Assembly (NCBI GenBank): GCA_903871875.1 | Contig: CAIQIR010000039.1 | Span: 62,001 to 126,000 of the forward strand | Length of the DNA stretch: 64,000 nt | Direction of reading: 5' to 3' | Origin: an uncultured Schlesneria sp. | Lineage (GTDB): Bacteria; Planctomycetota; Planctomycetia; Planctomycetales; Planctomycetaceae | Shown here: piece after piece, positions 6,565 to 30,415 of the stretch | Numbering within the stretch: the first letter of the stretch is position 1 | Layout: every line of letters begins with the position of its first letter | Program-made: the position numbers and the translations under genes | Notes under the pieces: generated by a model | What the model saw: only the letters and a program-made list of their open reading frames with translations | What the model was told of the DNA's origin: nothing | Databases searched by the model: none

Positions 6565-8781
6565 TTGTCGAAGCTGATCGCACCGCCGCGCTACTTGATA
6601 CCGCCATCGCTCGCTCGGCAGTTTGCCAGCGCGGTGGTGCTGGTTCTTTTTTTGACCCGCTATTTTTATGTCACCGAGTCGGCTGGGCAGGGCGATACGC
6701 TGTGGGTCGTGGCGTTTTGGCTGTTGGGTCTATTGATTTGGACCGCAGCTTCACGCGGCACCGCGTTCCGTAACGTGTCCTGGGGTTGGCTCGACTTGAG
6801 CGTCGGGCTGCTTGCAGGCGGTCACATCATTTCGGCCCTGATCGTGGTCGCAACGGGTGGCGAAAAGCGACTGGCCATCAACCTGGCGTGGGAATGGTGC
6901 GGGGTGGTCGTTGGCTGGTTTTTGTTACGACAGGCGTGTCGTCAGGAGGCGTTTCGGCGCGATCTTCTGATGGGGCTGATGGCGACAGGCACGGCCGTGG
7001 CAGGGTTGGGGCTGTACCAACATTATGTCGATTTCCCTCAGTTGGCCGCGAAGTATGGTCCTTTGTTTGATCGCTTAAGGGTGGCCGGGCCGACGGAAGC
7101 CGCCACGATCCGCCAGAAACTGGCGATCGATCAAATTCCCGTCGACGGTCCTGGCGTGAAGTTGTTTGAAATGCGACTGCGTGACAGTCGCGAACCGCTG
7201 GGATTTTTTGCCCTGGCCAACACGTTGGGCGGATTTTTGGCGGTTTGTTTAGTACTGGCGGTCAGTGGGATCGCCTCGGTTCGACAGCAGGGACTTCGTT
7301 GGATCTCGGCGCGGATGATGCTGTGGATTTCGATGATTGTCTTATTGGGATGGTGTTTGCTGCTGACGAAAAGCCGTACGGCCTGGATCGGGACGGCAGC
7401 TGGGCTGGTCTTATGGGGGTTTGGTTCGCAACGCCTCGTTGTGACCCGGGGGCGGCTAGCCGTGATTGGCGGTGTGATTGTTTGCCTGGCGGTTGGCGGT
7501 TGGACGCTCAGCCGGATCGGCGGCCTGGACCGGCAGGTCATCACAGAAGCACCGAAATCGCTGCAATATCGCCTTCAGTACTGGTCGGCCACGCTGCCGA
7601 TGATCAGAGATCACATTTTGTTCGGTGTGGGGCCCGGACAGTTTCGTTCGCATTACCTGTACTACAAGCTGCCCGAAGCCAGTGAAGAGATTTCTGATCC
7701 GCACAATCTGGTTTTGGACGTCGCCGCGAACGGAGGCCTAATTGCTCTCGTGGGGCTGTTTGCGATCGGTTTGCTATTCATCGTGAATGGGAATTCACCA
7801 AAGGGCAACGTTCAACCGTCAGAGGAACCGGTCTCCGACTTCTACGTTCCCCGTGTTCTTTCCGGACTGGTCGCGGCGATCTGGTGCTGCCTGCTGTGCA
7901 CGGGATATGACGACCGTTTGCTCGTGTTTCTTCCCGCCGCCGTGGTGATGTATTGGGTGCTGCGAGGGGTTGTTGGATCAGGGAATGCTGACGAACGTAT
8001 TTGGCGGGTCAGTGCGGTTTGTGCCGGGTTCGCCTTGTTTGTTCATTTGCTCGGTGCCGGCGGCATTGGCATGCCGGCGGTCAGCCTGCTGCTATTGGGA
8101 TTGGTGGCTCTGGCCGACGGCGGACGGAGCCCAGCCCCAAGATTTTCCTGGGACAATTCCCAGGGGGCGTTCGCCACCACGATGGTCTTCGGTGTTGGTT
8201 TGTTGGGGGCACTTTTCTTCACCGCCTTGCAGCCGGTCGCAGTCGTCGCGACGAGATTGCAGCAGGGAGATCGGTTGGTTCAGAAGGGGCTTTCAGAAGC
8301 GGCGGACGCGGAATATGGTCTGGCCACGTCAGCGGATACGTTCAGCGGCGAACCGTGGCGGAAACGGGCCGAGGTCGCTTTTCGCCGGGCGGAAGCCGAT
8401 CGATTTCGATCCAACGATTCGTTTGTGAATGCCGTACGTCTGATGCGCGAAGCGGCGGCGCGTGATCCGGTCAATTTTCAGGACGACCGCCGAATCGGTG
8501 ACTGGTGGCTTTCACGGTGGCAGGTGACCCATGAATTGAAGGATGCTCAGGAAGCTGTGGCGGCTTTCGAGCAAGCGTCAGCGCGTTATCCGACAAATGC
8601 GATGTTAATGGCCGAATTAGCCTTCGCCTTTGATGCCGCTGAAAAAGGTGGGGACGCAAGCATGGTTGCCCATAAGGCGATCGCGCAAGATCAGATCAAT
8701 CGCGAACGAGGACATGTTGATCGAGTTCTTGCCGATTCGGTTCGCACACGGTTGGAAAGGCTGTCGGCCACGCCGAATTGA
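6565..8781 (+). CDS. O-antigen ligase/polymerase-like membrane protein with C-terminal TPR-like tail
   Basis: The start is a TTG at 6565, preceded by GGAAGGAG with a 5-6 base spacer. The first 480 or so residues are a polytopic membrane domain. It contains the Wzy_C/O-antigen-ligase features: EPLGFFALANTLGGF, LTKSRTAWIG, and the large periplasmic-loop motif GVGPGQFRSHY followed by DPHNLVLDVAANGG. After a last hydrophobic cluster (about residues 480-565) the C-terminal 170 residues are soluble and helical, with TPR-like periodicity (AEYGLATSAD, AVAAFEQASARYP). It probably polymerises or ligates lipid-linked glycan made by the upstream transferase. The TPR-type tail may bind partners; this is inference from helical repeats only. 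Confidence 0.85.
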   Translation: MSKLIAPPRYLIPPSLARQFASAVVLVLFLTRYFYVTESAGQGDTLWVVAFWLLGLLIWTAASRGTAFRNVSWGWLDLSVGLLAGGHIISALIVVATGGEKRLAINLAWEWCGVVVGWFLLRQACRQEAFRRDLLMGLMATGTAVAGLGLYQHYVDFPQLAAKYGPLFDRLRVAGPTEAATIRQKLAIDQIPVDGPGVKLFEMRLRDSREPLGFFALANTLGGFLAVCLVLAVSGIASVRQQGLRWISARMMLWISMIVLLGWCLLLTKSRTAWIGTAAGLVLWGFGSQRLVVTRGRLAVIGGVIVCLAVGGWTLSRIGGLDRQVITEAPKSLQYRLQYWSATLPMIRDHILFGVGPGQFRSHYLYYKLPEASEEISDPHNLVLDVAANGGLIALVGLFAIGLLFIVNGNSPKGNVQPSEEPVSDFYVPRVLSGLVAAIWCCLLCTGYDDRLLVFLPAAVVMYWVLRGVVGSGNADERIWRVSAVCAGFALFVHLLGAGGIGMPAVSLLLLGLVALADGGRSPAPRFSWDNSQGAFATTMVFGVGLLGALFFTALQPVAVVATRLQQGDRLVQKGLSEAADAEYGLATSADTFSGEPWRKRAEVAFRRAEADRFRSNDSFVNAVRLMREAAARDPVNFQDDRRIGDWWLSRWQVTHELKDAQEAVAAFEQASARYPTNAMLMAELAFAFDAAEKGGDASMVAHKAIAQDQINRERGHVDRVLADSVRTRLERLSATPN

Positions 8782-8885
8782 CGGTTAGGCTGCTCGGTGT
8801 AAGTGATTGATTGGCAAGTTCTTTCCGATCTCGGCAGACTGTTGGTGTGAGACGCGAAATGGAAAAATTGAAACGTCCGGCCGAA

Positions 8886-8913
8886 TTGCAGTGACGTTCG
8901 ATTCGTTTATACT
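8886..8913 (+). promoter_or_regulatory. Candidate sigma70-type promoter for the DUF1573 operon
   Basis: TTGCAG (8886-8891) and TATACT (8908-8913) are separated by 16 bases, close to the housekeeping consensus. The site lies in the 195-base gap after the O-antigen-ligase-like gene and about 65 bases before the GTG start at 8977. Identified by eye only. Confidence 0.45.
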
Positions 8914-8976
8914 CGAAGTGACCAATGCTTCATGACGCGGGGTGTCGTGAAGCGACAAATCTGAGGGGTGGCATCA

Positions 8977-10311
8977 GTGAAACCGTTTGCGATCTTAGCG
9001 ACAATTATTTTCGGGCTGGCTTCTCTCGGTCTGGTGGTCTGGCTTGGGCAGTACAAGGGCACCGGGCTGATCCCCTCCATCAATCCGCCCAAAGGGACGA
9101 TTGATGAAGCGATGCCGTTGCCAAAGGCGGGGCCGTACGGCAAAGTCGAAATCGATGCGATTGAGCACAAATTTGGTGCGAAAACTGTGGGGGCAATTGA
9201 CGAACATGTCTTTGCCATCAAGAACGTCGGCGAAGGTCCTTTGGATCTGAAGCTGGGCAAGCCGACATGTCAATGTACGGTCGGTGAAATTGTCAAAGTG
9301 GGTAGCGATCCGTCGAAGCAGGATGCCCTCAAAACCACGGACCAGGTCTCGCTGGCTCCGGGCGAGGCGGTGAACATCCTGGTCAAATGGGTGATGAAGG
9401 CGGAAATCGACAAATTCCACCAGCAGGTGCCCGTTTTTACCACCGACCCGGAACGTCGACAGATTGATCTCAAAATCACCGGTTCGGTCGATAATCCGAT
9501 TCGTCTAGCTCCCTTGGGATTCTGGGACCTGGGTGTCATTTCGAAGACCGAGCCAACCAAGGGCGAAGGAATTGTCTATTCGAAGGTGCTGAACGATTTT
9601 GTCTTGACGGAAGTTCCCCGCGAAAAGAGTTTCGTTAAAGTCACTTTGACGCCGGCCGATCCTGATGCTCTCGAATCAAAAGAAGCCAAATGTGGTTACA
9701 AAGTCGCGGTGGAAGTGGGGCCGAATATTCCCATTGGGCTCCTGTTGGAAACGATCAAGCTGAAGGCCGTCTATGGCAAGGCGGAGCCGGAAGCGGCTGC
9801 GGGCGAGAAGCCGGAAGTGGCCAGCAGTGAAAATTCGGAAGGCGACAAGACCGAAGTGGAAAAGGCGGATGGCGAAAAAGCAGAGGGAAGCAACCTGGAT
9901 CCGGGCCAGAGTGAAGTCTTTCGAGAATTCACCGTTTCGGCTCGTCGATCCGGGCCGATTGATATCCGCGGGGTCGTTGGAGCTGGTTTCAATCCCACTT
10001 CCAATCGCCTGATTTTCACCGATTTCCCCGCCTCTGAGGGCAAAAAGGCCAAATTGACGCTCTTCGTGAAGGGGATGGACGAAGAGCTGGTGCTGAAATC
10101 GGTCGAGCCAGCAGATACCCGATTCAAGGCCCGAATTGTCGACGGTGGCAAGGTTTTGGGGAATTCGAAGAGCTATCAGATTGAGGTCGAAATTCCACCG
10201 GGCCCGGCCGGCAACCATCGCGAGTTGAAATCGGAATCGATTGATTTGATGCTCAATCATCCAGAAGCTCCTGACTTGAAATTGATCCTCGACTACAATG
10301 CCCTTCGTTAG
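8977..10311 (+). CDS. DUF1573 domain protein, membrane-anchored or exported
   Basis: The product is about 444 residues. It begins with one hydrophobic helix (FAILATIIFGLASLGLVVWL), a signal anchor or signal peptide. A DUF1573-type Ig-like domain follows, recognisable by EHVFAIKNVGEGPLDL and the cysteine pair in KPTCQCTVGEI. A second beta-rich region comes after a Glu/Lys/Ala-rich linker at about residues 270-310 (AAAGEKPEVASSENSEGDK). I start it at GTG 8977 rather than GTG 8968 because GAGGGG lies 8 bases before it. DUF1573 proteins are common in planctomycetes and Bacteroidetes and their function is unknown. The cytochrome-fusion gene follows at about 50 bases, so they are likely one operon. 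Confidence 0.85.
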   Translation: MKPFAILATIIFGLASLGLVVWLGQYKGTGLIPSINPPKGTIDEAMPLPKAGPYGKVEIDAIEHKFGAKTVGAIDEHVFAIKNVGEGPLDLKLGKPTCQCTVGEIVKVGSDPSKQDALKTTDQVSLAPGEAVNILVKWVMKAEIDKFHQQVPVFTTDPERRQIDLKITGSVDNPIRLAPLGFWDLGVISKTEPTKGEGIVYSKVLNDFVLTEVPREKSFVKVTLTPADPDALESKEAKCGYKVAVEVGPNIPIGLLLETIKLKAVYGKAEPEAAAGEKPEVASSENSEGDKTEVEKADGEKAEGSNLDPGQSEVFREFTVSARRSGPIDIRGVVGAGFNPTSNRLIFTDFPASEGKKAKLTLFVKGMDEELVLKSVEPADTRFKARIVDGGKVLGNSKSYQIEVEIPPGPAGNHRELKSESIDLMLNHPEAPDLKLILDYNALR

Positions 10312-10365
10312 GAGTTGCCGCACCGATTACGGTGGTGGTGCCGTAAACGGATTCCAGGAGGGATT

Positions 10366-11949
10366 GTGACTCACTCTTCGATGGTCAATTTCAAATGTTG
10401 TGCCGGGGTGACGGCTCTGTTTCTCGCTCTGTGTGCAGGGTGTAAACCGCCTGTTAGCGCCGAACCCCCGGCCAAAGTTTCTGCATCCCGGGCTGAATCA
10501 AGATCGATTCCTGTGATGCCTTTTCTGGACGGTTGGAAAAAGCCCGCAGTGGCGCTGCTGCTGAGTGGCGAACAACATGGCTATCTTGAGCCTTGCGGAT
10601 GTTCTGAAACCCAGTCCGGCGGGATGGCCCGACGTGCCGACTTGCTGCGGATCCTGGTCGAAGAGAAAGGCTGGGACGTCGTGGGGCTCGACGTGGGAGG
10701 GACGCTCAGGCGTTCCCGGCGACAGGACGAGATCAAGTTTGAGAAGATGTTCGAGGCATTTCAGCAGATGAACTACGCCGCCGTGGGTGTCGGCGTCGAA
10801 GAATTGAAAATGGGGCCCGAGTTTATTCTCACCCAGATGAAGGCAGATCCTGAGGAACTGGCCCGCTCTGCCGCGCTGGTCTCGGCGAACGTCGAGTTAT
10901 TTGGTCAGCCGGATCTCGGTTGGCCGCTGCCGTATCGCATGATCGAAAAAGGGGGAGTTAAGATCGGTGTTACCGCGATATTCGGGCCCAGTCTGACCGA
11001 CAAAGTGGCTCCGGCCGGTGTGAACACAAATATTAAAATTCTCGATCCCGATACTGTTTTGCCCGGCGTGATCAAAACGATTGAAGATCAAAAGCCAGAT
11101 CTGATGGTGCTGTTGTGTCATGGCAATGATGCGGAAGCGTTGAAATTCGCCCAGACCTATCCCCAGTTTCGGATCGTTCTGGCGGCGGGGGGCTATGAAG
11201 AGCCGGATGGCAAGCCAATTCAGGTCGGAAAAACGTGGGTTTTGAACGTCGGCCACAAAGGGAAACGGGTCGGCGTGTTGGGGTTTTATCCGGATAACAC
11301 CGCCGAGCCGTTTCGTTTCGAGTTGATTCAACTCGATAAGGATCGCTTCAAGAATCATCCTGCCATGCGCGAGTTGATGAAAAACTATCAACAGCAACTG
11401 GAAGATGAGGATATCGCTGCTTCGGACCTGTTTTTCATCAGCGAGCATCCGTCCCATGCGACCTTTGTCGGAGCCGAAAAATGTGGTACGTGCCATACCA
11501 AGGCCTTTGAACAGTGGAAAGGCACCGGCCACGCCGTCGCTTTCACAACGCTCAAAGAGGGGCCATGGCATGAAAATCGTGCGGACGAAAAAATCGGCTG
11601 GATCAAGCGACAGTTTGATCCTGAATGTCTGTCGTGCCACGTGACAGGCTGGAATCCGCAAGAAATGCTGCGCTACGGAAGCGGTTACGTCAAAGAGTCG
11701 CTATCGCCCCATTTGTTGGGCCAGCAATGCGAGAACTGTCACGGCCCCGGCAGCGCGCATGTGACGCTGGAAGAAAGCGGTGCTAGTATGGACGAGTTGC
11801 TCGAAGGGCGTCGCAAGGTGCGACGCACCGTGGCGGAAGCGAAGAAATCGATGTGTGTCGAATGTCACGATCCCGATAATAGTCCCAAGTTCACGCCCGA
11901 ACGATTCGATGAATTTTGGGAACAGGTCAAGCATCCGTTCAAGGACTAA
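10366..11949 (+). CDS. Lipoprotein: 5'-nucleotidase-like domain fused to tetraheme cytochrome module
   Basis: The N-terminus has a lipoprotein-like signal (LFLALCAGC). Residues about 55-330 resemble the metallophosphoesterase/5'-nucleotidase fold seen in planctomycete multiheme proteins: HGYLEPCGCSETQSGGMARR near the start, then LDVGGTLRR and LMVLLCHGNDAEAL. The C-terminal 170 residues carry four CxxCH heme sites (CGTCH, CLSCH, CENCH, CVECH). Their spacing and the EQWKGTGHA and CHGPGSAH contexts are as in cytochrome c554-like proteins. It probably sits outside the inner membrane and carries electrons. GTG 10366 is taken as start because AGGAGG precedes it; an ATG at 10381 is an alternative. 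Whether the nucleotidase half is catalytic is unclear because the usual metal-binding set is not complete by eye. Confidence 0.82.
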   Translation: MTHSSMVNFKCCAGVTALFLALCAGCKPPVSAEPPAKVSASRAESRSIPVMPFLDGWKKPAVALLLSGEQHGYLEPCGCSETQSGGMARRADLLRILVEEKGWDVVGLDVGGTLRRSRRQDEIKFEKMFEAFQQMNYAAVGVGVEELKMGPEFILTQMKADPEELARSAALVSANVELFGQPDLGWPLPYRMIEKGGVKIGVTAIFGPSLTDKVAPAGVNTNIKILDPDTVLPGVIKTIEDQKPDLMVLLCHGNDAEALKFAQTYPQFRIVLAAGGYEEPDGKPIQVGKTWVLNVGHKGKRVGVLGFYPDNTAEPFRFELIQLDKDRFKNHPAMRELMKNYQQQLEDEDIAASDLFFISEHPSHATFVGAEKCGTCHTKAFEQWKGTGHAVAFTTLKEGPWHENRADEKIGWIKRQFDPECLSCHVTGWNPQEMLRYGSGYVKESLSPHLLGQQCENCHGPGSAHVTLEESGASMDELLEGRRKVRRTVAEAKKSMCVECHDPDNSPKFTPERFDEFWEQVKHPFKD

Positions 11950-11964
11950 CTCGAAAGATCATTC

Positions 11965-12279
11965 GTGACCGATAATGTGCCCCCGCAATCGCTTCGAGCC
12001 TTGAAAGACGCCGGTGTTTTCGAAATCGCGTGGCCCGATGGCCGCTCGGCGCGTCTGCCGTTTAAGCTGGTCCGGTGTGAATGTCCTTGTGCCCAGTGTG
12101 TCGACGAGATCACCGGAGTTCGTACGCTGCGTCCCGAGGCCATTCCCGACGATATTCGTCCGGTCGGATTGGACTATTCCGGCAACTACGCCTTGAAGAT
12201 CGTCTGGAGTGATCAACACGGCTCGGGGATTTACACCTGGGATCGGTTGCGTCGGCTTTGCGAACTGTCGCAAACCTGA
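11965..12279 (+). CDS. DUF971 (GBBH-like) domain protein
   Basis: This 104-residue protein starts with GTG, 15 bases after the cytochrome-fusion stop. It has the DUF971 pattern: IAWPDGRSARLPFKLVR, the cysteine pair CECPCAQC, then DIRPVGLDYSGNYALKIVWSDQHGSGIYTWDRLRRL. The last part is the hallmark of the family, which includes the N-terminal domain of gamma-butyrobetaine hydroxylase and small proteins linked to Fe-S or Mrp/ApbC contexts. Its four-cysteine stretch could bind zinc or a cluster, which is inference. Position in an operon with a multiheme protein suggests a role in cofactor or redox protein handling. Confidence 0.85.
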   Translation: MTDNVPPQSLRALKDAGVFEIAWPDGRSARLPFKLVRCECPCAQCVDEITGVRTLRPEAIPDDIRPVGLDYSGNYALKIVWSDQHGSGIYTWDRLRRLCELSQT

Positions 12280-18973: not shown

Positions 18974-18985
18974 AAGTTGAGGGGT

Positions 18986-19897
18986 ATGGTGGCCAAGACC
19001 GCGTTCCTGTTTCCGGGGCAGGGGGCTCAGCATGTGGGGATGGGCAAGGTCATCTCCTCGCGATTTCCTGCTGCGAAAGCCCTTTACGACAAGGCGAACG
19101 AGATTCTTGGTTTCGACTTGGCGTCGCTCTGCTTTGAAGGGCCGGCCGAACGGCTTGATACCACGGTCATCAGCCAGCCGGCCTTGTTCGTCAGTAGTCT
19201 GGCCGCGCTCGAGATGCTGCGGGCGGAAAGTCCGGAGATTGTCGACAGTTGCGCGATGTCGGCTGGCTTAAGTCTGGGGGAATATACCGCGTTGGTGTTC
19301 GCAGGGGCGATGTCCTTCGAGGACGGGTTACGAGTCGTGCAGCGACGCGGCGAGGCGATGCAGCAGGCAGCGGACGCGAATCCTTCAGGGATGGTCAGCG
19401 CATTAATTCTGGGTCACGACCAGGTGGCCAAGGTTCGCGAGGACGCAACTGCAGCTGGCCAGATCTGGGTTGCCAACTATTTGTGTCCTGGAAATACCGT
19501 CTTGTCGGGCGACAAGCCGGCCTGTGCGAAAGCGGCCGAACTGATCGAGCAGGCAGGGGGCGGGGCCCGGATGTTGACGGTGGCGGGCGCATTCCATACG
19601 CCGCTGATGGGTTCGGCTTGTGAGCGACTGGAAGAGGTGTTGCGATCAGTGCCGATTCAGTCACCACGGATTCCTGTGGTTTCTAATGTCGACGCCAAGG
19701 TTCACGAGGGGGCTGATCGCGTGCGCGAGATCCTGGTGCGGCAAGTGACGCAACCAGTTCTGTGGGAAGGTTGTGTTCGGGAATTGCTGGCGCAGGGGTG
19801 CGACCGATTCTACGAAATCGGTCCGGGAAAAGTATTGAAGGGATTGATGAAGCGAATTGATCGTAAGGTCGAATGCCTGACAGTGAACGACGACTGA
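18986..19897 (+). CDS. fabD: Malonyl CoA-ACP transacylase
   Basis: The protein of about 303 residues opens with KTAFLFPGQGAQHVGMG, the FabD N-terminus with oxyanion Gln. The nucleophile motif reads GLSLGEYTALVFAGA, with Ser at residue 96; the usual GHSxG has Leu in place of His. The second catalytic residue lies in VAGAFHTPLM. FabD moves malonyl from CoA to ACP for chain elongation. The start is uncertain: ATG 18986 is used; GTG 18989 is better spaced from GAGGGG, and a TTG at 18977 is in frame. It is 12 bases after plsX, so the genes are presumably one transcript. Confidence 0.95.
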   Translation: MVAKTAFLFPGQGAQHVGMGKVISSRFPAAKALYDKANEILGFDLASLCFEGPAERLDTTVISQPALFVSSLAALEMLRAESPEIVDSCAMSAGLSLGEYTALVFAGAMSFEDGLRVVQRRGEAMQQAADANPSGMVSALILGHDQVAKVREDATAAGQIWVANYLCPGNTVLSGDKPACAKAAELIEQAGGGARMLTVAGAFHTPLMGSACERLEEVLRSVPIQSPRIPVVSNVDAKVHEGADRVREILVRQVTQPVLWEGCVRELLAQGCDRFYEIGPGKVLKGLMKRIDRKVECLTVNDD

Positions 19898-20010
19898 ACC
19901 TCGTTCGCTGAGCGGTCGGGAGGGGGCTGATTTGGGCTCTGGCCGCTCACGGGAAGGGCCATGGCAGAGGGCTTCCCTTTCGAATTCATCGGCGGATCTT
20001 TTCGTTGCGG

Positions 20011-20039
20011 TTTACACGACTCTGAAAACCCGGTATACC
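20011..20039 (+). promoter_or_regulatory. Candidate promoter for acpP-fabF
   Basis: TTTACA (20011-20016) and TATACC (20034-20039) are 17 bases apart. The -10 hexamer lies inside a perfect 10-base palindrome, CGGTATACCG (20031-20040), which could be a regulator site. It would give a leader of roughly 235 bases before acpP. Identified by eye. Confidence 0.4.
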
Positions 20040-20154
20040 GTGCCGACATCAGAGAAGGAACTGCATCTTAATTCGGTAATTTCACTTGTTCACTTTGTGC
20101 AGCAAGCAATGGGTGAATTGCCGGTTTGGTGAATGTCAGGGCTGACAGGTCTGT

Positions 20155-20187
20155 GACGAGGCATGTTCGATTCCTGCATGTCTCGTC
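20155..20187 (+). promoter_or_regulatory. Stem-loop in acpP leader (11-bp stem)
   Basis: GACGAGGCATG (20155-20165) pairs with CATGTCTCGTC (20177-20187), with a single G-U pair and an 11-base loop. No T run follows, so it is not an ordinary terminator. It lies about 93 bases before the acpP start. Confidence 0.45.
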
Positions 20188-20216
20188 GATAAATGCGGAA
20201 AAACCATGATAAAACA

Positions 20217-20239
20217 CCCAGTACGATGGCCGTGCTGGG
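20217..20239 (+). promoter_or_regulatory. Stem-loop just upstream of acpP
   Basis: CCCAGTACG (20217-20225) pairs with CGTGCTGGG (20231-20239) around a 5-base loop, with one wobble pair, and is followed by ATTTTC. It ends 28 bases before the acpP ribosome binding site. It could be a weak terminator/attenuator or an RNA-stabilising element. Confidence 0.45.
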
Positions 20240-20279
20240 ATTTTCGGATTACCAAGATTCGGCTCCAAAGGAGTGAGGC

Positions 20280-20516
20280 GTGGCGTCGTCGATTGAAGAG
20301 AAAGTCATCGGGATTGTCAGTGAACAACTGAATATTCCAAAAGAAGATATCAAATTGAACAGCGATTTCGTTGCTGATTTGAAGGCCGATTCGCTCGATT
20401 TGGTGGAACTCGTCATGGAGTTCGAAGACGAGTTTGGCGTTCAGATCCCTGAGTCGGATCAAGAAAAGATCAAATCTGTTGGTGATGCAGTCAAGTACAT
20501 CACGGAGAAGCAGTGA
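20280..20516 (+). CDS. acpP: Acyl carrier protein
   Basis: This 78-residue acidic protein starts at GTG 20280, preceded by AAGGAG with a 6-base spacer. It contains the ACP signature DLKADSLDLVELVMEFED. Ser38 is the expected site for the 4'-phosphopantetheine arm, and the C-terminal EFGVQIPESDQEKIKSVGDA is typical. ACP carries growing acyl chains for FabD, FabF and PlsX. fabF begins 4 bases after its stop. Its long, structured upstream region suggests separate transcription from rpmF-plsX-fabD. Confidence 0.98.
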   Translation: MASSIEEKVIGIVSEQLNIPKEDIKLNSDFVADLKADSLDLVELVMEFEDEFGVQIPESDQEKIKSVGDAVKYITEKQ

Positions 20517-20519
20517 CGG

Positions 20520-21758
20520 ATGTCCAGACGCGTCGTCGTGACAGGGATGTCGGTCATCACCGCTCTTGGCTCGGAGGTTTCCGAGTTTTGGGAGCGCCTG
20601 TGCGCGGGCAAAAGCGGTGTCGGCCGGCTGGAGCGATTTGATTGCTCCGACTTCAAGGTCAGCTTTGGTGGCGAAGTCAAAGACTTCCGCCCCGAAGACC
20701 ATTTTGATTCCAAAGAAGCCAAGCGGCTTGATCGTTTTAGTCAGTTTGCCTTAGCGTCGGCGCAAAAAGCGATTCATCAATCGGGTATCGATTTTCAGAA
20801 GATCGCCGATCCCTACCGCTGCGGTGTGATTATTGGCAGTGGCATCGGTGGCTTGAACGAGATCGAAGAACAGCACGCCAAGTTGTTCGACCGCGGTCCG
20901 TCGCGGGTTTCGCCGTTCATGATTCCGAAATTAATGGTCAATGCGGCTACCGGAAATATTTCGGTCCAATTTGGTTTGAAAGGCCCGAGCAGTGCGGTGG
21001 CGACGGCTTGCGCTTCGGCGACGAATGCAATTGGAGATGCTTACCGACTGATTCAGCACGACGTGGCTGATATCCTGATCGCCGGCGGAAGCGAAGCGGC
21101 GATCACGCCGATGGGGCTTTCGGGTTTCGCCAGAATGGGGGCTTTGTCGACTCGCAATGATTGTCCTCAATCGGCCAGTCGACCGTTCGATCGTGATCGA
21201 GATGGCTTTGTTCTGGCCGAAGGGGCCGGCGTGGTTGTCTTGGAAGAATATGAGCACGCGAAAAAACGGGGTGCCGCGATCCTGGGTGAAGTGCTTGGTT
21301 ACGGTGTCTCGTCTGACGGTTCCCATATGACGGCTCCTGACCCCGAAGGGACAGGAGCGGCCATGGCGATGAGTTTGGCGCTAAAGGATGCCCGGGTGGG
21401 TGTCGAAGAGGTCAGCTACATCAACGCGCACGGGACGAGTACGCCACTTGGTGACAAGGCTGAGACGAACGCCATTAAGCGAGTGTTTGGGGCGGAGTCA
21501 AAGCGAGTTTGTGTTTCGAGCACGAAAAGTCAGTTGGGGCATTTGTTGGGGGCTTCAGGTGGGGTTGAGTTTGTCATCTCCATTTTGGCGTTGTCGCATC
21601 ATGTCATCCCTCCAACCATTAATATGGAAACTCCCGATCCCGATTGTGATCTCGATTACGTTCCGAACAAGGCGCGTGGAATGCGGGTTAATCGGGTGAT
21701 GTCCAATAGTTTCGGTTTTGGCGGTCATAACGCCTGTTTGGTCGTGGGACGGGTGTGA
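20520..21758 (+). CDS. fabF: 3-oxoacyl-ACP synthase II
   Basis: The 412-residue protein starts RRVVVTGMSVITALG and has all KAS II catalytic residues. Cys164 lies in TACASATNAIG, His304 in NAHGTSTPLGD, and Lys336 and His341 in STKSQLGHLLGASG. The C-terminal FGFGGHNACLVVGR is also standard. It condenses malonyl-ACP with acyl-ACP to extend fatty acids. Length and order acpP-fabF are canonical. It is followed, after about 180 bases, by a related protein without the active-site cysteine, so this one is the working enzyme. Confidence 0.97.
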   Translation: MSRRVVVTGMSVITALGSEVSEFWERLCAGKSGVGRLERFDCSDFKVSFGGEVKDFRPEDHFDSKEAKRLDRFSQFALASAQKAIHQSGIDFQKIADPYRCGVIIGSGIGGLNEIEEQHAKLFDRGPSRVSPFMIPKLMVNAATGNISVQFGLKGPSSAVATACASATNAIGDAYRLIQHDVADILIAGGSEAAITPMGLSGFARMGALSTRNDCPQSASRPFDRDRDGFVLAEGAGVVVLEEYEHAKKRGAAILGEVLGYGVSSDGSHMTAPDPEGTGAAMAMSLALKDARVGVEEVSYINAHGTSTPLGDKAETNAIKRVFGAESKRVCVSSTKSQLGHLLGASGGVEFVISILALSHHVIPPTINMETPDPDCDLDYVPNKARGMRVNRVMSNSFGFGGHNACLVVGRV

Positions 21759-21936: not shown

Positions 21937-23280
21937 ATGATTGACGCCAACGAGCAAATAATTGTGACCAGATCCTCTTCGCCTCGAGAAGTTGTCATTA
22001 CCGGTATCGGGATTGTAAGCCCGATCGGGATTGGCATTAGTACGTTCTGGGAGAACCTCTCCCAGGGGCGATCTGGTATTGCTCATGGTAAATTATTCCC
22101 GGGATTTGCCGCGCCCGACGGAGTGGGCGGTGAAGTGCGAGAGTTCACCGATGAGTCGGCTCGTAAAGTTTATTTGAAAGAGCAACGCAAGAATCTGAAG
22201 GCGATGTGTCGCGAAATTCAGTTGGGCGTCGCCTCGGCCCTGCTCGCTTTGCAAAATGCGAACGTCAATCTGGAACAAATCAACCACGATCGTCTGGGGG
22301 TTGAGTTTGGCGCCAATTTGATGCTCAGTCCGCCTGAGGTTCTGTTGGAAGGTTGTTCGGCGTGCTGCGAAGAAGGAACCGACGTGTTCCAGAAATCTCG
22401 CTGGGGCCAGATGGGGTTAACCAAGCTGGAACCGCTGTGGTTGCTTCGATATCTGCCTAATATGCCGGCCTGTCACATCAGTATTTCCGCAGACGCCCGT
22501 GGTCCCAGCAATTCACTGACACTCGACGATGCGTCCGGTAACACTGTGGTGGGTGAAGCGATGCGAATCATCTTACGCGGCGACGCGGATTTGATGATCG
22601 TCGGTGTGACCGGAACGACGCTACATCCGATCAAAACTTTGCATCTGGCGCTATGGGACGATTTGGCTCGGACCCCAGAAGCTCCCGAATCGCGTGCTCG
22701 ACCGTTCGATCTGAATCGATCGGGGCGGGTTGTTGCCGAAGGTTCGTGTTCGTTCATTTTGGAAGATCGAGCGCACGCCGAACAGCGTGGTGCAAAGATC
22801 TGGGGCCGCGTGCTCGGAACCGGTTCGTCATGTGTGATGGATCCGCAAAAGGGTGCGAATTACCGCCTCGCGATGGCGAACGCCATGCGTGCCGCGTTGC
22901 GTGATGCCGGTTTGCGTCCTGATCAGATTGGGCATATCAACGCCCATGGCTTGGGGACGCGGGATGTCGATATTGCCGAATCTCAAGCGATCCTGGACGT
23001 ATTCGGAGATGATCTGGGGCGGCGCATTCCAGTCACGGCTATGAAAAGCTTCCTCGGTAACTCGGGAGCGGGTTCGGGATTGTTAGAGCTCGCCGGGTCG
23101 ATCGTGGGGTTGGCACACGGCGTGATTCCTTACACGCTGAACTACGAGACTCCTGATCCTGCTTGTCCTTTGAATGTGGTCTCCAAGGAACTGCTGGCGA
23201 CATCAAATCGGGTGGTCATGAGCGTTAACGTCACTCGCGTTGGGCAAGCGGCGGCTGCCATCGTCGAAGTGCAAAGTTAG
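21937..23280 (+). CDS. Ketosynthase-like protein lacking the active-site cysteine
   Basis: The 447-residue product is clearly a beta-ketoacyl synthase by overall order: REVVITGIGIVSPIG at the start, RPFDLNRSGRVVAEG, INAHGLGTRD, then TPDPACPLNVV. At the nucleophile position, fabF's TACASAT aligns with LDDASGN here, so Cys is replaced by Asp198. The first catalytic His is kept (His337) and the Lys is kept (Lys370), but the second His is Asn375 in FLGNSGAGSG. It may act like a chain-length-factor subunit, a decarboxylase, or a structural partner of FabF; none is proven. The ATG at 21937 is preferred to a TTG at 21886 because the family starts just after it. Confidence 0.85.
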   Translation: MIDANEQIIVTRSSSPREVVITGIGIVSPIGIGISTFWENLSQGRSGIAHGKLFPGFAAPDGVGGEVREFTDESARKVYLKEQRKNLKAMCREIQLGVASALLALQNANVNLEQINHDRLGVEFGANLMLSPPEVLLEGCSACCEEGTDVFQKSRWGQMGLTKLEPLWLLRYLPNMPACHISISADARGPSNSLTLDDASGNTVVGEAMRIILRGDADLMIVGVTGTTLHPIKTLHLALWDDLARTPEAPESRARPFDLNRSGRVVAEGSCSFILEDRAHAEQRGAKIWGRVLGTGSSCVMDPQKGANYRLAMANAMRAALRDAGLRPDQIGHINAHGLGTRDVDIAESQAILDVFGDDLGRRIPVTAMKSFLGNSGAGSGLLELAGSIVGLAHGVIPYTLNYETPDPACPLNVVSKELLATSNRVVMSVNVTRVGQAAAAIVEVQS

Positions 23281-25734: not shown

Positions 25735-27135
25735 ATGAACGGTCCTGAACTCTTGAGAATCGTGGATGCGATTCATCGAGATAAGAGCATTGACAAGGAA
25801 ATTGTGTTCGAAGGGATCGAGCAAGCCATTCTTTCGGCGGCGCGGAAGCACTACGGCGAAGAGGAAGTTATCGAAGTTCACGTTGATCGGACCACGGGTC
25901 ATCCGACCGTCAAGACGAACGGTCAGGAAGTCGATTCCGATGCTTTGGGTGAGTTGCTGGGGCGAATTTCCGCTCAAACCGCCAAGCAGGTGATGATTCA
26001 AAAGATTCGCGAAGCAGAACGCGACGCGCTGTTTGACGAATATGTCGAGCAACGCAACCAGATCGTGACCGGAACGGTTTCGAAGCTGGAGGGTGGCTCG
26101 TCCATCGTTAATCTCGGGAAGGTCGAAGGGTTGCTGCCTCGCGGTGAGCAAATCCCCGGTGAAGGCTTTCGCGTGGGTGATCGAGTCAGGGCGATTGTTC
26201 TGGAAGTTCGCAAGTCGGGCAGCCGCGTCAAGATTATTCTTTCGAGAATTCACGTCGAATTCGTGCGGCGATTGTTCGAGTTGGAAATCCCGGAAGTTTC
26301 TGAGCGAATTATCGAAGTTCGGTCGTTGGCTCGCGAAGCTGGCTATCGGTCGAAAGTGGCGGTCAGCTGCATTGACAACAACATCGACGCGGTCGGAGCT
26401 TGTGTTGGTGTTCGCGGGGCGCGGATCAAGAATATTACGGGTGAGCTGGGCGACGAAAAGATCGATATTGTTCGCTGGAATGATTCGTTGCAGGTGCTTG
26501 TTCCCAATGCGCTGCAGCCAGCCGAAGTGGAAGACGTGATTCTCTGTCCGATGTTGGGGCGAGTGATCGTGCTGGTGCGCGACGATCAATTGTCGCTCGC
26601 CATCGGCAAGCGGGGGCAAAATGTCCGGCTCGCGTCGAAGCTCGTGGGTTGGGATATTGAAGTGATGACGCGAGAGGAGCTGGATGAGCAGCTTGAGCGA
26701 GCCGTTCAGGCCTTCTCGGAGACTCCGGGTGTCACGGCTGATTTGGCCGAGAGTTTGGTGGCCCAGGGCTTTTTGAGCTTTGATGACTTGTCGGTGATCG
26801 AGCCCGATCAGTTGGCGGAGATGGGTGGGCTGACAGAAGAGCAGTGTGACATCATCGTGGCCCACGCCGAGAACGAAAGTGAACGGCTGGAACGCGAAGA
26901 AAAGCTACGACGCGCTCAAGAGAAGGCGCAGGCATCGATCAATTCGCATCACGAGCATGAAGAGCGACGGAAGCCAGGTGTTCCAGAAAAGGTTGAGCCG
27001 GTGGTCGAGGCCGCCCCAGAGGTGGTCGAGACGCCAGTTGACACTGAAGTAGCGTCGGCTGATACTGAGGCCGCATCGCCAGAGGCTGAAGTGACAACCG
27101 ACATGAATGAAGTAGGGCATCAGTCCGGTCCGTGA
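25735..27135 (+). CDS. nusA: Transcription termination/antitermination factor NusA
   Basis: The 466-residue protein has the NusA order. The N-terminal RNA-polymerase-binding domain ([17 protein letters not shown]) comes first, then an S1 domain ([18 protein letters not shown] to KIILSR) and two KH domains with [19 protein letters not shown] and [22 protein letters not shown] helix-hairpin-helix-like segment ([21 protein letters not shown]) then precedes an acidic, Glu/Val-rich tail. NusA controls pausing and termination. GAGG lies 7-8 bases before the ATG. infB follows after 409 bases and rbfA after that, the usual cluster. Its leader contains a terminator, which fits NusA-dependent control of its own operon. 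Confidence 0.97.
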
Positions 27136-27544
27136 GTTTTGAGGGTCGGGTCGAGTTGACTCGATGTTTGTTTGATCTGCATTTCATCGATTGAGGTATC
27201 TGTCATCGTCGAGGCGATGGTGGGGTCTCAGGAGTGGTAGGGCGCAGAGCCTCTTTTAGGGAAACAGTGAAGCCCGTAAGAAGTGCCGATTTGGGTTGGC
27301 AGCCCGAAGTTCAACGTCGTCATCACAATCATGAACAAAGTGCTGGCGAACACGAATCGCTGGATGTGAATGGACCGTCAGCGTTTGACGGGGCGTGACA
27401 AGAGCGATTCGGTTCCGATGGCGTTTGAGAAAATACAATTCGGGCAGCGGTTCCGGGACTGAGTATCGTTCCGGCGTCCCCCCCCTGGTCGTCGCAAATA
27501 CTCCGGCAATTCCGGTTGGGCATTTCCCTACGAAGGACTGGCGT
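27136..27544. other. nusA-infB intergenic region, no gene assigned
   Basis: In many bacteria ylxR and an L7Ae-type gene sit here. I looked for the YlxR pattern and did not find it. A 54-codon frame beginning GTG near 27234 has an upstream AGGA but no recognisable product. No terminator is evident, so infB may still be transcribed with nusA. Confidence 0.4.
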
Positions 27545-30415
27545 TTGAAAATACGAATCTTCGCTCTTGCCAAAGAGCTTGATATCGATAGCAAATTATT
27601 GATCGATTACTGTGCCAAGGCCGGGATCACGATCAAGAATTCTGCATTGGCGAGTATCTCGCCGGAAGAACGCGATCGCGTTCTGGATGTCATGCGATCA
27701 AGTGGTCCTGCGGCTTCCACAGCTGCCGCTCCAGGTGTCCCTGTTCCGGCCGCTTCGGCGCCGGTGATGGCGTCGCGCGACCCCGTTGTCGATTTGGCCG
27801 TCAAATCGCGGCCGATCCGAGTCATGGGTGCCAAGCCGCCTTTGATGGTGCCTCGTTCGCGGATGAGCGACGCCGATTCCGCCAAACCGGTCGCCGAGGC
27901 GCCCGCTGCGGTTGATGTCGAGGAAACTCCGGTCGTCGAACCTGTCGAATCGATCGAAATGGCCCCGCCGGTGGCTGTCGAAGAGGTTGTTGCCAAAGAA
28001 TCGCCGCGGAAGCCCGAAAGCCGTGGCAAATCGGGTGGTATTCCGTCGTCTCCCCAGCCGCCGCAAGGTGAGCCCGTCGACGATTCCACTCTAGCACCGC
28101 CCAAGACAACGGTCGCATCAGCGGTCGAAAGCAAAGACAAGGGTGGGCCCGTTCAGCCGCCCGTTTCGCGAAGTGATTTTGCGGGGCCGTCCTCGCCACA
28201 AAAATCGATGCGTGTCATGGTCTCGCGTGGAACCGCTGATATGGCAGGTGCCAAAGCGGGAGCCCCGATCAAGAAGGCGAAAGCGGCTGGGCCCCAAATC
28301 GCAGAAATTCCGCGATTCAAGGCGCCTCCCTCGAATAAAACGCCAAAACCCGAAGAAGCCACTCCGCAGCGGCCCGTCCAGCGATTCAATGCCGATGGTC
28401 CGACAAAAGAAGCTCCGTTGGGGCCGATTTTGAGGAAGCGGCCTGAGACGACGACGAAAAAGAAACCGGGTGAAGACGAGCCGGATGATACGAAGGCCAA
28501 GAAACACGTCGGCGGTGCATCCTTGCAGGATGCCCGCAATCAACGGCGCAAAGTCAGTTTGAAGGATATCGACGAAGAGGAAGATCGCGGTGGGCGTGGA
28601 TCGCGAGTTCGCCCGAAACCTCATCGGCGTTCGGGGCCGGTACCGTTGAAGTCGACGGCCGAACTTGAGCTGCCTTTGACCGTGCGATCTCTGTCCGAAG
28701 GGATCGGTCGTCCTGCCAAGGCGATCATGCAGATTCTCTGGCAGCGGGGTGACATGGTGACGATCAATTCTGCGTTGGAAGAAGACGTTGCGATTGAGAT
28801 CTGTCTTGAACTTGGCGTTGATCTGCAGATTCGCCGTGAAAAAACCATCGAAGACGAAGTCACCGAAGTCGTCTCTGGAGAAGATCTTCCCGAAGATCTG
28901 CTGCCTCGTCCGCCGATCATCACGATCCTGGGGCACGTCGATCACGGAAAGACGACACTGGTCGACAAATTGCGATCCGCGAATGTGGCGGGATCGGAAT
29001 ATGGAGGTATCACCCAGCATATTGCCGCCTATCAGATCGAACATAACGGTCAGAAGCTGACTTTTGTGGATACACCCGGTCACGCGGCATTCGGTGAGAT
29101 GCGTGCCCGCGGTGCGAACGTGACGGACATTGTCGTACTGGTTGTTGCGGCCAACGACGGCGTCATGCCGCAAACCGTGGAATGTATTTCCCACGCCCGT
29201 GCAGCGAATGTTCCGATCGTCGTGGCGATGAACAAAATCGACTTGCCGGAACGCAACGAACAGCGCGTGCTGACGGAACTGTCGGCGCAAAACGTTCTGG
29301 CGGCCGAATGGGGCGGCGACGTCGAAGTCGTACGGACTTCGGGACTCACCGGTCAGGGCTTGCCTGAACTGCTGGACACGTTGCTGCTGACCTCGGAACT
29401 TCACGAGTTCAAAGCGAACCCAAACCGACCTGCATCGGGTGTCTGTCTGGAAGCGTTCCGGGACGAGGGGCGCGGGCCGTTGGCCTGGTTGATCGTCCAG
29501 AAAGGCACTCTTCGCGTCGGCGATGTCATGTTGTGCGGCGAGGCCTATGGTCGTATTCGTGCGATGTACAACGAACGCGACGAAGAACTGCAAGAGGCTC
29601 TTCCTTCGACCCCGGTCAAAGTCGCTGGTCTCGACATCGTTCCCGGTGCCGGAGGACAATTCCTGGTGCTGTCGGATGTCGAAGCGGCTCGCGAGGCGGC
29701 CGAATCACGTCGTCAAAAGGGACGTGCTTCCGTGCTGGCCAACATGGGTGGCAAACGCACCCTGGAGGATATTCTGAATGCCGCGCTGGAAGGCGAGATC
29801 CAGGATCTGGCCGTGATCGTCAAGGCCGATTCGCCGGGATCGCTCGAAGCACTGAGAAGCGAATTGGGCAAGTTCGAACATGCCGAAGTTCGAGTCAAAC
29901 TGCTGCACGAGGGTGTCGGTGGTGTCAACGAAAGCGATGTCTATCTGGCCTCGGCCTCGAACGCGGTCATCTTCGCGTTCCATGTCATTGCCGAAGACCG
30001 GGCTCAGTTGCTGGCTCAACAGGAAGGTGTCGAAATCCGTCGTTACAACATCATTTATGAAGTGATGGACGAGATTCGCCGGATCCTGGAAGGCATGCTC
30101 AGGCCCGAACAGAAGGAAGTCGCTACCGGTCGTGCGATCGTGTTGCGAACCTTCAGTATTACTCGCTTTGGGACGATCGCCGGATGTCGCGTGCTGAACG
30201 GGACCATCGAACGATCGAGTCGCATCCATCTGATTCGTGATCAACGAGTGATCAACACCTACAACATCGCCTCACTGAAACGTGAAAAAGACGATGCACG
30301 CGACGTTCGCGAAGGGATGGAATGCGGGATTCGACTCGAGAACTTCAACGACGTCAAAGAAGGTGATTTGCTGGAAGCGTTCAAGATCGAAGAAGTCAAA
30401 CGATCGTTGGAATAA
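27545..30415 (+). CDS. infB: Translation initiation factor IF-2
   Basis: The product is about 956 residues. I start it at TTG 27545, where AAGGA lies 7 bases upstream and translation gives [22 protein letters not shown], the IF2 N-terminal domain; a longer frame from 27395 is not supported. A long Pro/Ala/Lys/Glu-rich linker (about residues 60-400) is followed by a second IF2_N-like segment ([19 protein letters not shown]). The GTPase domain comes next, with [27 protein letters not shown] and NKIDLPE. It brings fMet-tRNA to the 30S subunit. Linker length varies widely between species and is long here. rbfA follows at 79 bases. Confidence 0.96.

What the first reader, a model, noticed from the sequence alone, without database searches (positions are those of the whole stretch)
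21937..23280. Pseudo-ketosynthase beside fabF: catalytic Cys replaced by Asp and second His by Asn
Alignment by eye with fabF (20520-21758) puts Asp198 where fabF has Cys164 and Asn375 where fabF has His341, while the first His (His337) and the Lys (Lys370) are kept. Known chain-length factors of type II polyketide synthases also lost the Cys, but usually to Gln. A decarboxylase or FabF-partner role, or a specialised lipid role, is possible. Its position directly after fabF makes a FabF heterodimer the simplest hypothesis.
Basis: partly seen in the sequence, partly recalled or inferred. Interest (0 to 1): 0.7.

Follow-up and report, generated by a model that had tools for sequence, protein, structure and literature searches.

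The report
Dead ketosynthase, likely silent enzyme partner
A gene beside the core fatty-acid genes of a planctomycete makes a conserved ketosynthase look-alike that has lost its catalytic cysteine; it probably serves as the silent half of a two-protein lipid-building enzyme whose active half is encoded in a second operon elsewhere in the genome.

Summary
At 21937-23280 lies a full-length KS-fold protein with Asp198, His337, Lys370 and Asn375 where FabF has Cys164, His304, Lys336 and His341.

It is not a decaying gene. All 28 same-family genomes searched carry it, dN/dS is 0.03-0.08, and the Cys position is acidic in 144 of 148 readable relatives, never Cys. It follows fabF in only 16 of 28.

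The tree derives it from an active KS ("KS1"; support 100/97) whose slot is just upstream of another active KS ("KS2") in a second operon. In 17 other genomes the dead KS still sits beside or near KS2. In the window's genome that operon is intact but the slot is empty. Among 199 phylum genomes, KS1-type (dead or active) and KS2 occur together in 30, KS2 alone in none, KS1-type alone in 2, both cut at contig ends.

Best reading: a KSbeta/chain-length-factor-like subunit, descended from KS2's partner and moved beside fabF. FabF pairing remains possible; no interaction was tested. The residue loss was reported for Rhodopirellula baltica in 2009 (PMC2649909).

The parts
21937..23280 (+). pKS (subfamily A): catalytically dead ketosynthase homologue, 447 aa
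   Evidence: AlphaFold model pLDDT 93.5, pTM 0.91, best solved-structure matches are FabF chains
22528..22530 (+). codon of Asp198, in place of the nucleophile Cys
   Evidence: acidic in 144 of 148 relatives
22945..22947 (+). codon of His337 (first catalytic His, kept)
   Evidence: His in 116 of 148 relatives
23044..23046 (+). codon of Lys370 (kept)
   Evidence: Lys in 143 of 147 relatives
23059..23061 (+). codon of Asn375, in place of the second catalytic His
   Evidence: Asn in 104 of 147 relatives
22432..22467 (+). segment PLWLLRYLPNMP (residues 166-177), highly conserved; Trp168 aligns with E. coli FabF Phe133 (numbering and interface role recalled)
   Evidence: Trp in 146 of 148, Lys/Arg at 171 in 140 of 148; 13 of 37 invariant columns of A1 lie in residues 156-195
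20520..21758 (+). fabF, KAS II with Cys164-His304-Lys336-His341
   Evidence: TIGR03150 626 bits, over the cut-off
20280..20516 (+). acpP, acyl carrier protein, 3 bp before fabF
   Evidence: PF00550; spacing
18977..19897 (+). fabD, malonyl transferase
   Evidence: PF00698
17966..18973 (+). plsX
   Evidence: PF02504
23678..25288 (-). TPR protein; context only, neighbour in many of the relatives
25735..30415 (+). nusA (25735-27135) and infB/IF-2 (27395-30415); context only, neighbours in many of the relatives

Best explanation
The gene encodes a non-catalytic KSbeta-like (chain-length-factor-like) subunit. Supported by tree and gene order: it descends from an active ketosynthase (KS1) whose gene lay directly upstream of a second active ketosynthase (KS2) in a type II FAS/PKS-like operon (FabA-like dehydratase, FabG-like reductase in some, ACP, FabA-like dehydratase, KS1, KS2). 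In other lineages the dead copy is still there beside KS2. In the window's family it left the operon, duplicated (copies A and B), and copy A lies between fabF and nusA in many genomes. Inferred: it heterodimerises with KS2 in trans. KS2 (Cys-His-His) does the condensations, while the dead subunit supplies the other half of the dimer and, through the nearly invariant Trp at the FabF Phe133 position, the floor of KS2's acyl tunnel, so it sets chain length or substrate choice. The Asp/Glu that replaces Cys, with the kept Lys, probably holds the empty pocket in shape. Its place beside fabF would tie its supply to the core fatty-acid genes. The product of the KS2 operon is unknown; a ketoreductase and two dehydratases without an enoyl reductase in the operon hint at an unsaturated or hydroxylated acyl chain.
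For: Dead KS family is one clade (100/99) with KS1 (Cys-His-His) as sister (100/97), inside a KS1+KS2 clade that also holds four G354 rows (99/100), apart from FabF. The 97-row quick tree agrees on the dead clade (99) and its KS1 sister (92) but leaves KS2's place unresolved. Seventeen genomes keep the dead KS in tandem with or near KS2; 14 of 17 spacings are 70 bp or less, overlaps of longest ORFs included. Thirteen of 20 loci fetched have dehydratase-(reductase)-ACP-dehydratase-KS2 with the slot empty, the window's own genome among them; G377, the basal branch of the same class in the tree, has a like operon with the dead KS inside. Co-occurrence in 199 genomes: 30 both (26 dead, 4 active KS1), 0 KS2 only, 2 KS1-type only (both at contig ends), 167 neither (counted by hand). 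KS2 carries an acidic E-x-E-Q-E segment, with its first two Glu invariant in 14 aligned, where FabF and the dead KS have K/R and hydrophobic residues; that form was not seen in the four KS2s paired with an active KS1. Purifying selection.
Against: No interaction was tested. In 16 of 28 genomes copy A follows fabF, and in two same-class genomes it lies two or three predicted genes from acpP-fabF, so a link to core FAS is real. A second match of 42-47% (copy B) is found in 28 of 28 family genomes, while 8 of 10 of them searched with the KS2 profile have one KS2, so at least one copy may have another partner. The first His and the Lys are mostly kept, unlike the two His positions of the three chain-length factors compared. 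Co-occurrence is not corrected for relatedness (KS2 lies in 12 family groups), and its dead-KS search was cut at E 1e-90, so a diverged copy in a genome without KS2 could be missed: G172's copy matched in part, at only 236 bits. K/R at residue 171 is also Lys in FabF, so the charge argument rests on KS2 alone.
Confidence: 0.58

Rival explanations
1. FabF partner: copy A pairs with the adjacent FabF and changes chain length or substrate choice of core fatty acid synthesis.
For: Downstream of fabF on the same strand in 16 of 28 family genomes and in 10 of 13 further loci looked at (2 of the other 3 are cut by the contig start); two same-class f2 genomes keep it two or three predicted genes from acpP-fabF and one from nusA (L098, L099).
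Against: 12 of 28 genomes have no fabF in the fetched stretch; the fabF-to-pKS spacing is 127-855 bp in 15 of 16 cases and 15 bp in one, while acpP-fabF is 3 bp in the window; KS matches occur in 378 of 392 genomes, and the 13 borderline genomes read have a Cys-His-His FabF-like KS without this family showing; descent is from KS2's neighbour.
Confidence: 0.2
2. Independent enzyme with an acid-His-Lys-Asn site, for instance a malonyl-ACP decarboxylase making acetyl-ACP, or a hydrolase; the His-Asn pair recalls KAS III (recalled).
For: The signature acid-His-Lys-Asn is kept in 90 of 147 fully readable rows (EHKN 73, DHKN 17); Asp/Glu is kept in 144 of 148.
Against: First His lost in 32 of 148, including 4 of 28 direct orthologues; the GFGG gate is lost in the copies A and B that were read; the acid shifts between Asp and Glu and is once Gly within the 28.
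Confidence: 0.13
3. A homodimeric acyl-ACP or malonyl-ACP sensor or carrier without a KS partner.
For: Copies A and B are freestanding in many genomes; the fold is confidently predicted.
Against: Tandem or near tie to KS2 in 17 genomes and co-occurrence.
Confidence: 0.07
4. Decaying duplicate without function.
For: Catalytic residues lost.
Against: dN/dS 0.03-0.08, an open frame without stops in all 28 family genomes (27 cover the query nearly whole; the one in G344 runs to 3 bases from its contig end), 146 of 148 keep Trp168.
Confidence: 0.02

Closest known systems
Chain-length factor (KSbeta) of type II polyketide synthases, e.g. ActKSbeta (1tqy_B)
   Same: KS fold, no catalytic Cys, Lys kept, relatives encoded in tandem with an active KS, an ACP and tailoring enzymes
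   Different: Asp/Glu, not Gln/His, at the Cys position; first His kept and second His to Asn, where three plasmid-borne CLFs have Asp and Arg; separate place in the tree (though a joint clade is not rejected, AU p 0.198); in the window's genome not encoded with its proposed KS
Rhodopirellula baltica FabF paralogues NP_866153 (Glu163-His298-Lys328-Asn333) and NP_865682 (Asp163-His298-Ile328-His333), Rattray et al. 2009, PMC2649909
   Same: Same acid-for-Cys loss and, for NP_866153, the same His-Lys-Asn set; same phylum
   Different: Reported as residue deviations in the context of ladderane lipids; the passages and the one section read give no KS2 partner or operon origin for them. Sequence identity with the window protein not tested here
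Non-canonical KSs of anammox bacteria (Kuste3606, Kuste2805, Kuste3348)
   Same: KS homologues without Cys-His-His; Kuste3606 and the like genes read here lie next to an active KS, Kuste3606 with ACP and FabZ
   Different: Val/Phe-Asn/Cys-Lys-Glu signature in the eight read here, second gene of the pair, and a separate clade in the tree (joint clade AU p 0.058). The Kuenenia proteins themselves were not in hand
KSQ loading domains and FabF C163Q mutants
   Same: Cys replaced in an otherwise intact KS fold
   Different: Gln with both His kept (recalled); here an acid with Asn for the second His
ApeO-ApeC of aryl polyene clusters (PMC8358021, passages read) and highly reducing type II PKSs such as ishigamide Iga11-Iga12 (recalled)
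   Same: Heterodimer of an active KS and a chain-length factor working with a reductase and dehydratases
   Different: ApeC is about half-size with one thiolase fold; the protein here is full length; product unknown

Membership tests
FabF / KAS II (TIGR03150) | score over the equivalog cut-off | tested here: not met
   251 bits against 493.75
FabF / KAS II (TIGR03150) | Cys-His-His-Lys active site | tested here: not met
   Asp198-His337-Asn375-Lys370
FabF / KAS II (TIGR03150) | GFGG gating loop (PMC7138838, passages) | tested here: not met
   VNVTRVGQA
KS fold (PF00109/PF02801) | both domains over gathering score and KS structure | tested here: met
Type II PKS chain-length factor (KSbeta) | no nucleophilic Cys | tested here: met
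Type II PKS chain-length factor (KSbeta) | Gln (or His) at Cys, Asp and Arg at the two His, as in 3 annotated CLFs | tested here: not met
   Q/D/K/R, H/D/K/R, Q/D/K/R in CLFs; D/H/K/N here
Type II PKS chain-length factor (KSbeta) | gene adjacent to its cognate KS | tested here: inconclusive
   met in relatives: 17 genomes beside or near KS2; in the window the neighbour is FabF and KS2 is on another contig
Type II PKS chain-length factor (KSbeta) | common descent with actinobacterial CLFs | tested here: inconclusive
   ML tree separates them; AU test does not reject a joint clade, p 0.198; only 3 CLFs used
Type II PKS chain-length factor (KSbeta) | heterodimer with KS and control of chain length | not testable with these tools
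   needs protein
KSQ malonyl decarboxylase | Gln at Cys position with both His kept (recalled) | tested here: not met
   Asp and Asn

The most novel reading that the evidence does not exclude
The dead subunit is a mobile KSbeta shared between two lipid machines: released from the KS2 operon and duplicated, copy A beside fabF competes for or bridges FabF and KS2, so that core fatty acid synthesis and the second pathway are coupled through exchange of one silent subunit. It would be an independently evolved class of KSbeta with an acid in the nucleophile place.
Probability: 0.2. Interest if true: 0.78.

Novelty: new variant of a known kind. Interest (0 to 1): 0.6.

Why it matters
Type II polyketide chain-length factors are the textbook dead ketosynthases. 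Here a probably separate origin can be read step by step: active KS1-KS2 pair, then dead KS1 beside KS2, then dead KS1 moved out and duplicated. It names a testable partner for a protein otherwise likely to be annotated as another FabF, and points to a second type II lipid or polyketide operon, with its KS2 found in 12 family groups of Planctomycetota, for which the searches run here found no description.

Tried and rejected
Pseudogene: rejected by dN/dS 0.03-0.08.

Fixed Asp: rejected; Glu is commoner.

Always after fabF: rejected, 16 of 28.

Member of the anammox dead-KS group: not supported by the ML tree, borderline by AU test (p 0.058).

Common origin with actinobacterial CLFs: not favoured by the ML tree, but not rejected (p 0.198); the CLF branch is long (1.54).

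Hydrazine synthase (PF18582) as a marker of anammox genomes: 76 of 392 genomes match, so it is not specific. I read the groups f46, f77, f95 and f99 as anammox from ORF length (about 800-845 aa) and copy number; that is inference.

Promoter/terminator scan between fabF and the gene: at chance level.

Structure match: only says KS fold, nearest FabF; it does not tell partners. Dimer prediction was not possible with the tool.

Neighbours of copy B, in the four B loci clustered, show no shared gene apart from one in two loci; the later B loci were not clustered.

Rows dropped: one search left out near-identical pKS rows and most FabF rows; one search used a hand-picked 63; one search dropped 6 duplicates, 2 rows could not be read and one is cut after the first His; its rows do not include the 15 dead KSs first read (13 acidic, 1 Ser, 1 Asn). 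pKS membership was assigned by best BLAST hit, not by residues. The KS2 threshold (A2 at least 520 bits) was set after seeing the scores.

Full report
What is there. The window is part of a Schlesneria-like planctomycete (closest named locus L126, 82% identity, titled uncultured Schlesneria). The region reads plsX, fabD, acpP, fabF, the finding, a TPR gene on the other strand, nusA, infB. The finding is a 447-aa KS homologue, 31-32% identical to its neighbour FabF, well under the FabF cut-off. Its AlphaFold model is confident (pLDDT 93.5, pTM 0.91) and closest to FabF structures. Residues are Asp198, His337, Lys370 and Asn375 against Cys164, His304, Lys336 and His341. The GFGG gate described for FabF (PMC7138838, passages read) is TRVGQ here.

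Orthologues. Of 392 phylum genomes searched, 28 are of the same family (own genome included), and all 28 have a 47-100% match. In these 28 the Cys position is Glu 23, Asp 4, Gly 1; first His kept in 24 (Asn 2, Ser 1, Gly 1); Lys in 28; second His replaced by Asn in 25 and Ser in 3. All 28 also have a second match of 42-47% (copy B); 19 of these 28 were read and all 19 have Asp or Glu. A wider census of 150 distinct family members (2 unreadable) gives Glu 113, Asp 31, Ser 2, Gly 1, Asn 1 and no Cys. Fifteen more dead KSs read later give 13 acidic, 1 Ser, 1 Asn. dN/dS in eight pairs is 0.029-0.081; fabF in five of the same pairs is 0.000-0.016. So the protein is under clear purifying selection, though looser than fabF.

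Gene order. Copy A follows fabF on the same strand in 16 of 28 genomes, in two of these (L056, L058) with a predicted ORF of about 190 aa between; the other 12 fetched stretches show no fabF. In some the gene keeps the nusA neighbour without fabF (L046, L051, L057, L062). The fabF-to-pKS spacing is mostly about 400 bp (range 15-855 to the longest ORF start; 178 bp to ATG in the window), against 3 bp between acpP and fabF in the window. In two same-class genomes (L098, L099) the order is acpP-fabF-two or three predicted genes-pKS-one gene-nusA. The link with the core locus is therefore probably old but loose.

Origin. A 63-row tree puts all dead KSs of this family in one clade (100/99) with three active KSs, here called KS1 (L117, L119, L121), as sister (100/97). 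KS1, KS2, the dead KSs and four G354 rows form a clade (99/100) apart from FabF, actinobacterial KS/CLF and the anammox dead KSs. A 97-row quick tree agrees on the dead clade (99) and the KS1 sister (92) but does not resolve where KS2 belongs. Against a separate origin, the AU test does not reject a joint clade of dead KS and actinobacterial CLF (p 0.198) and is borderline for the anammox group (p 0.058).

The second operon. In G013 and G042 the order is dehydratase-ACP-dehydratase-KS1(Cys-His-His)-KS2. In G055 it is dehydratase-reductase-ACP-dehydratase-deadKS-KS2-GH3-methyltransferase-DUF362. In G377, a same-class genome on the basal branch of the class's dead KSs, it is dehydratase-ORF-ACP-dehydratase-deadKS-KS2-hydrolase-GH3. 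In the window's own genome, contig C24 has dehydratase-reductase-ACP-dehydratase-KS2-hydrolase with nothing between the second dehydratase and KS2 (15 bp). Of 20 loci fetched, 13 have this empty-slot arrangement (9 with the reductase, 4 without), 4 have KS2-type genes without these neighbours, 2 have KS1-KS2, and 1 held no KS2. Dead KS and KS2 side by side or near were seen in 17 genomes: 14 at 70 bp or less (some longest ORFs overlap, by up to 274 bp), 3 at 373-661 bp. The tandem state in outgroups and the empty slot here suggest that the gene left the operon. The four f7 genomes G002, G034, G095 and G172 also have both genes at separate places, while a fifth, G270, has them 600 bp apart.

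Co-occurrence. Using profiles of the dead KS (A1) and KS2 (A2) on the same 199 genomes, 30 have KS2 (at least 520 bits). All 30 have a dead (26) or active (4: G013, G042, G063, G132) KS1; two of them, G002 and G172, only showed it when searched with a looser limit. Two genomes (G093, G075) have KS1-type without KS2, and both have it cut at a contig end. 167 have neither; 13 of these with borderline A1 matches were read and all 13 are Cys-His-His, but weaker matches in genomes without KS2 were not looked at. A KS match is found in 378 of 392 genomes. The numbers were read by hand from the tables and are not corrected for kinship.

Mechanism. Shown: loss of the nucleophile and of the second His, a confidently predicted KS fold, conservation of the segment PLWLLKYLPNM (Trp168 in 146 of 148), and the tie to KS2. 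Inferred: heterodimer with KS2. In FabF the residue aligned with Trp168 is Phe133, which reaches into the partner's acyl pocket (recalled). KS2 has an acidic E-x-E-Q-E run in the same segment, which one would not expect in a homodimer (inference). The acid at the nucleophile place with the kept Lys is probably structural. A catalytic role is not excluded for the window protein, which keeps His337 and Lys370.

Known work. Rattray et al. 2009 (PMC2649909; passages and section 9 read) already listed two R. baltica FabF paralogues with Asp and Glu for Cys163, one with His298, Lys328 and Asn333. So the residue observation is in print. Kuste3606 and its cluster appear there and in PMC4790861 (passages read). 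The searches listed no paper whose title or abstract start treats this family's partner or operon. A type II PKS catalogue names Planctomycetes once among KS-CLF carriers (PMC10132072, passages) and may include the tandem pairs. Preprints and most subscription papers were not covered.

Verdict. A real, conserved, dead KS with a traceable origin, best read as a KSbeta-like subunit displaced from its ancestral partner's operon; partner identity remains to be tested.

Noticed in passing
L212 (G000:C24:29000-48300), 7046-12094 minus strand: Second type II FAS/PKS-like operon in the window's genome (FabA-like, FabG-like, ACP, FabA-like, KS2, alpha/beta hydrolase) with no KSbeta in it; product unknown.
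   Followed up: partly
window 19898-20279: No fabG between fabD and acpP in the window's core locus, whereas G377 and G057 have a FabG-like gene there (L279, L292); the KS2 operon of the own genome has a FabG-like gene. Other FabG-like genes were not searched for.
   Followed up: no
L076 (G000:C79:224000-240000), 7015-9673: A further tandem of a FabF-like KS (56% to fabF) and a KS2-clade KS, both Cys-His-His, 97 bp apart, downstream of a MarR-like gene.
   Followed up: no
L264, L265, L267, L268, L271, L272, L274, L277: Probable anammox genomes carry tandem active KS plus dead KS (Val/Phe, Asn or Cys, Lys, Glu at the four sites); the six put in the tree fall in a separate clade from the planctomycete dead KS.
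   Followed up: partly
L273 (G354:C107:9000-28000): Cluster with four KSs, two Cys-His-His and two with Phe/Ala for Cys and Asp for the first His, plus fabD-, FabG-, ACP- and FabZ-like genes.
   Followed up: no
L146: Contig titled Candidatus Kuenenia stuttgartiensis carries a Planctomycetaceae-type copy (55% identity); probably a mislabelled bin.
   Followed up: no
L284, 8633 onward (G034:C1): A 281-aa, weakly similar KS fragment lies one gene after the dead KS in G034.
   Followed up: no
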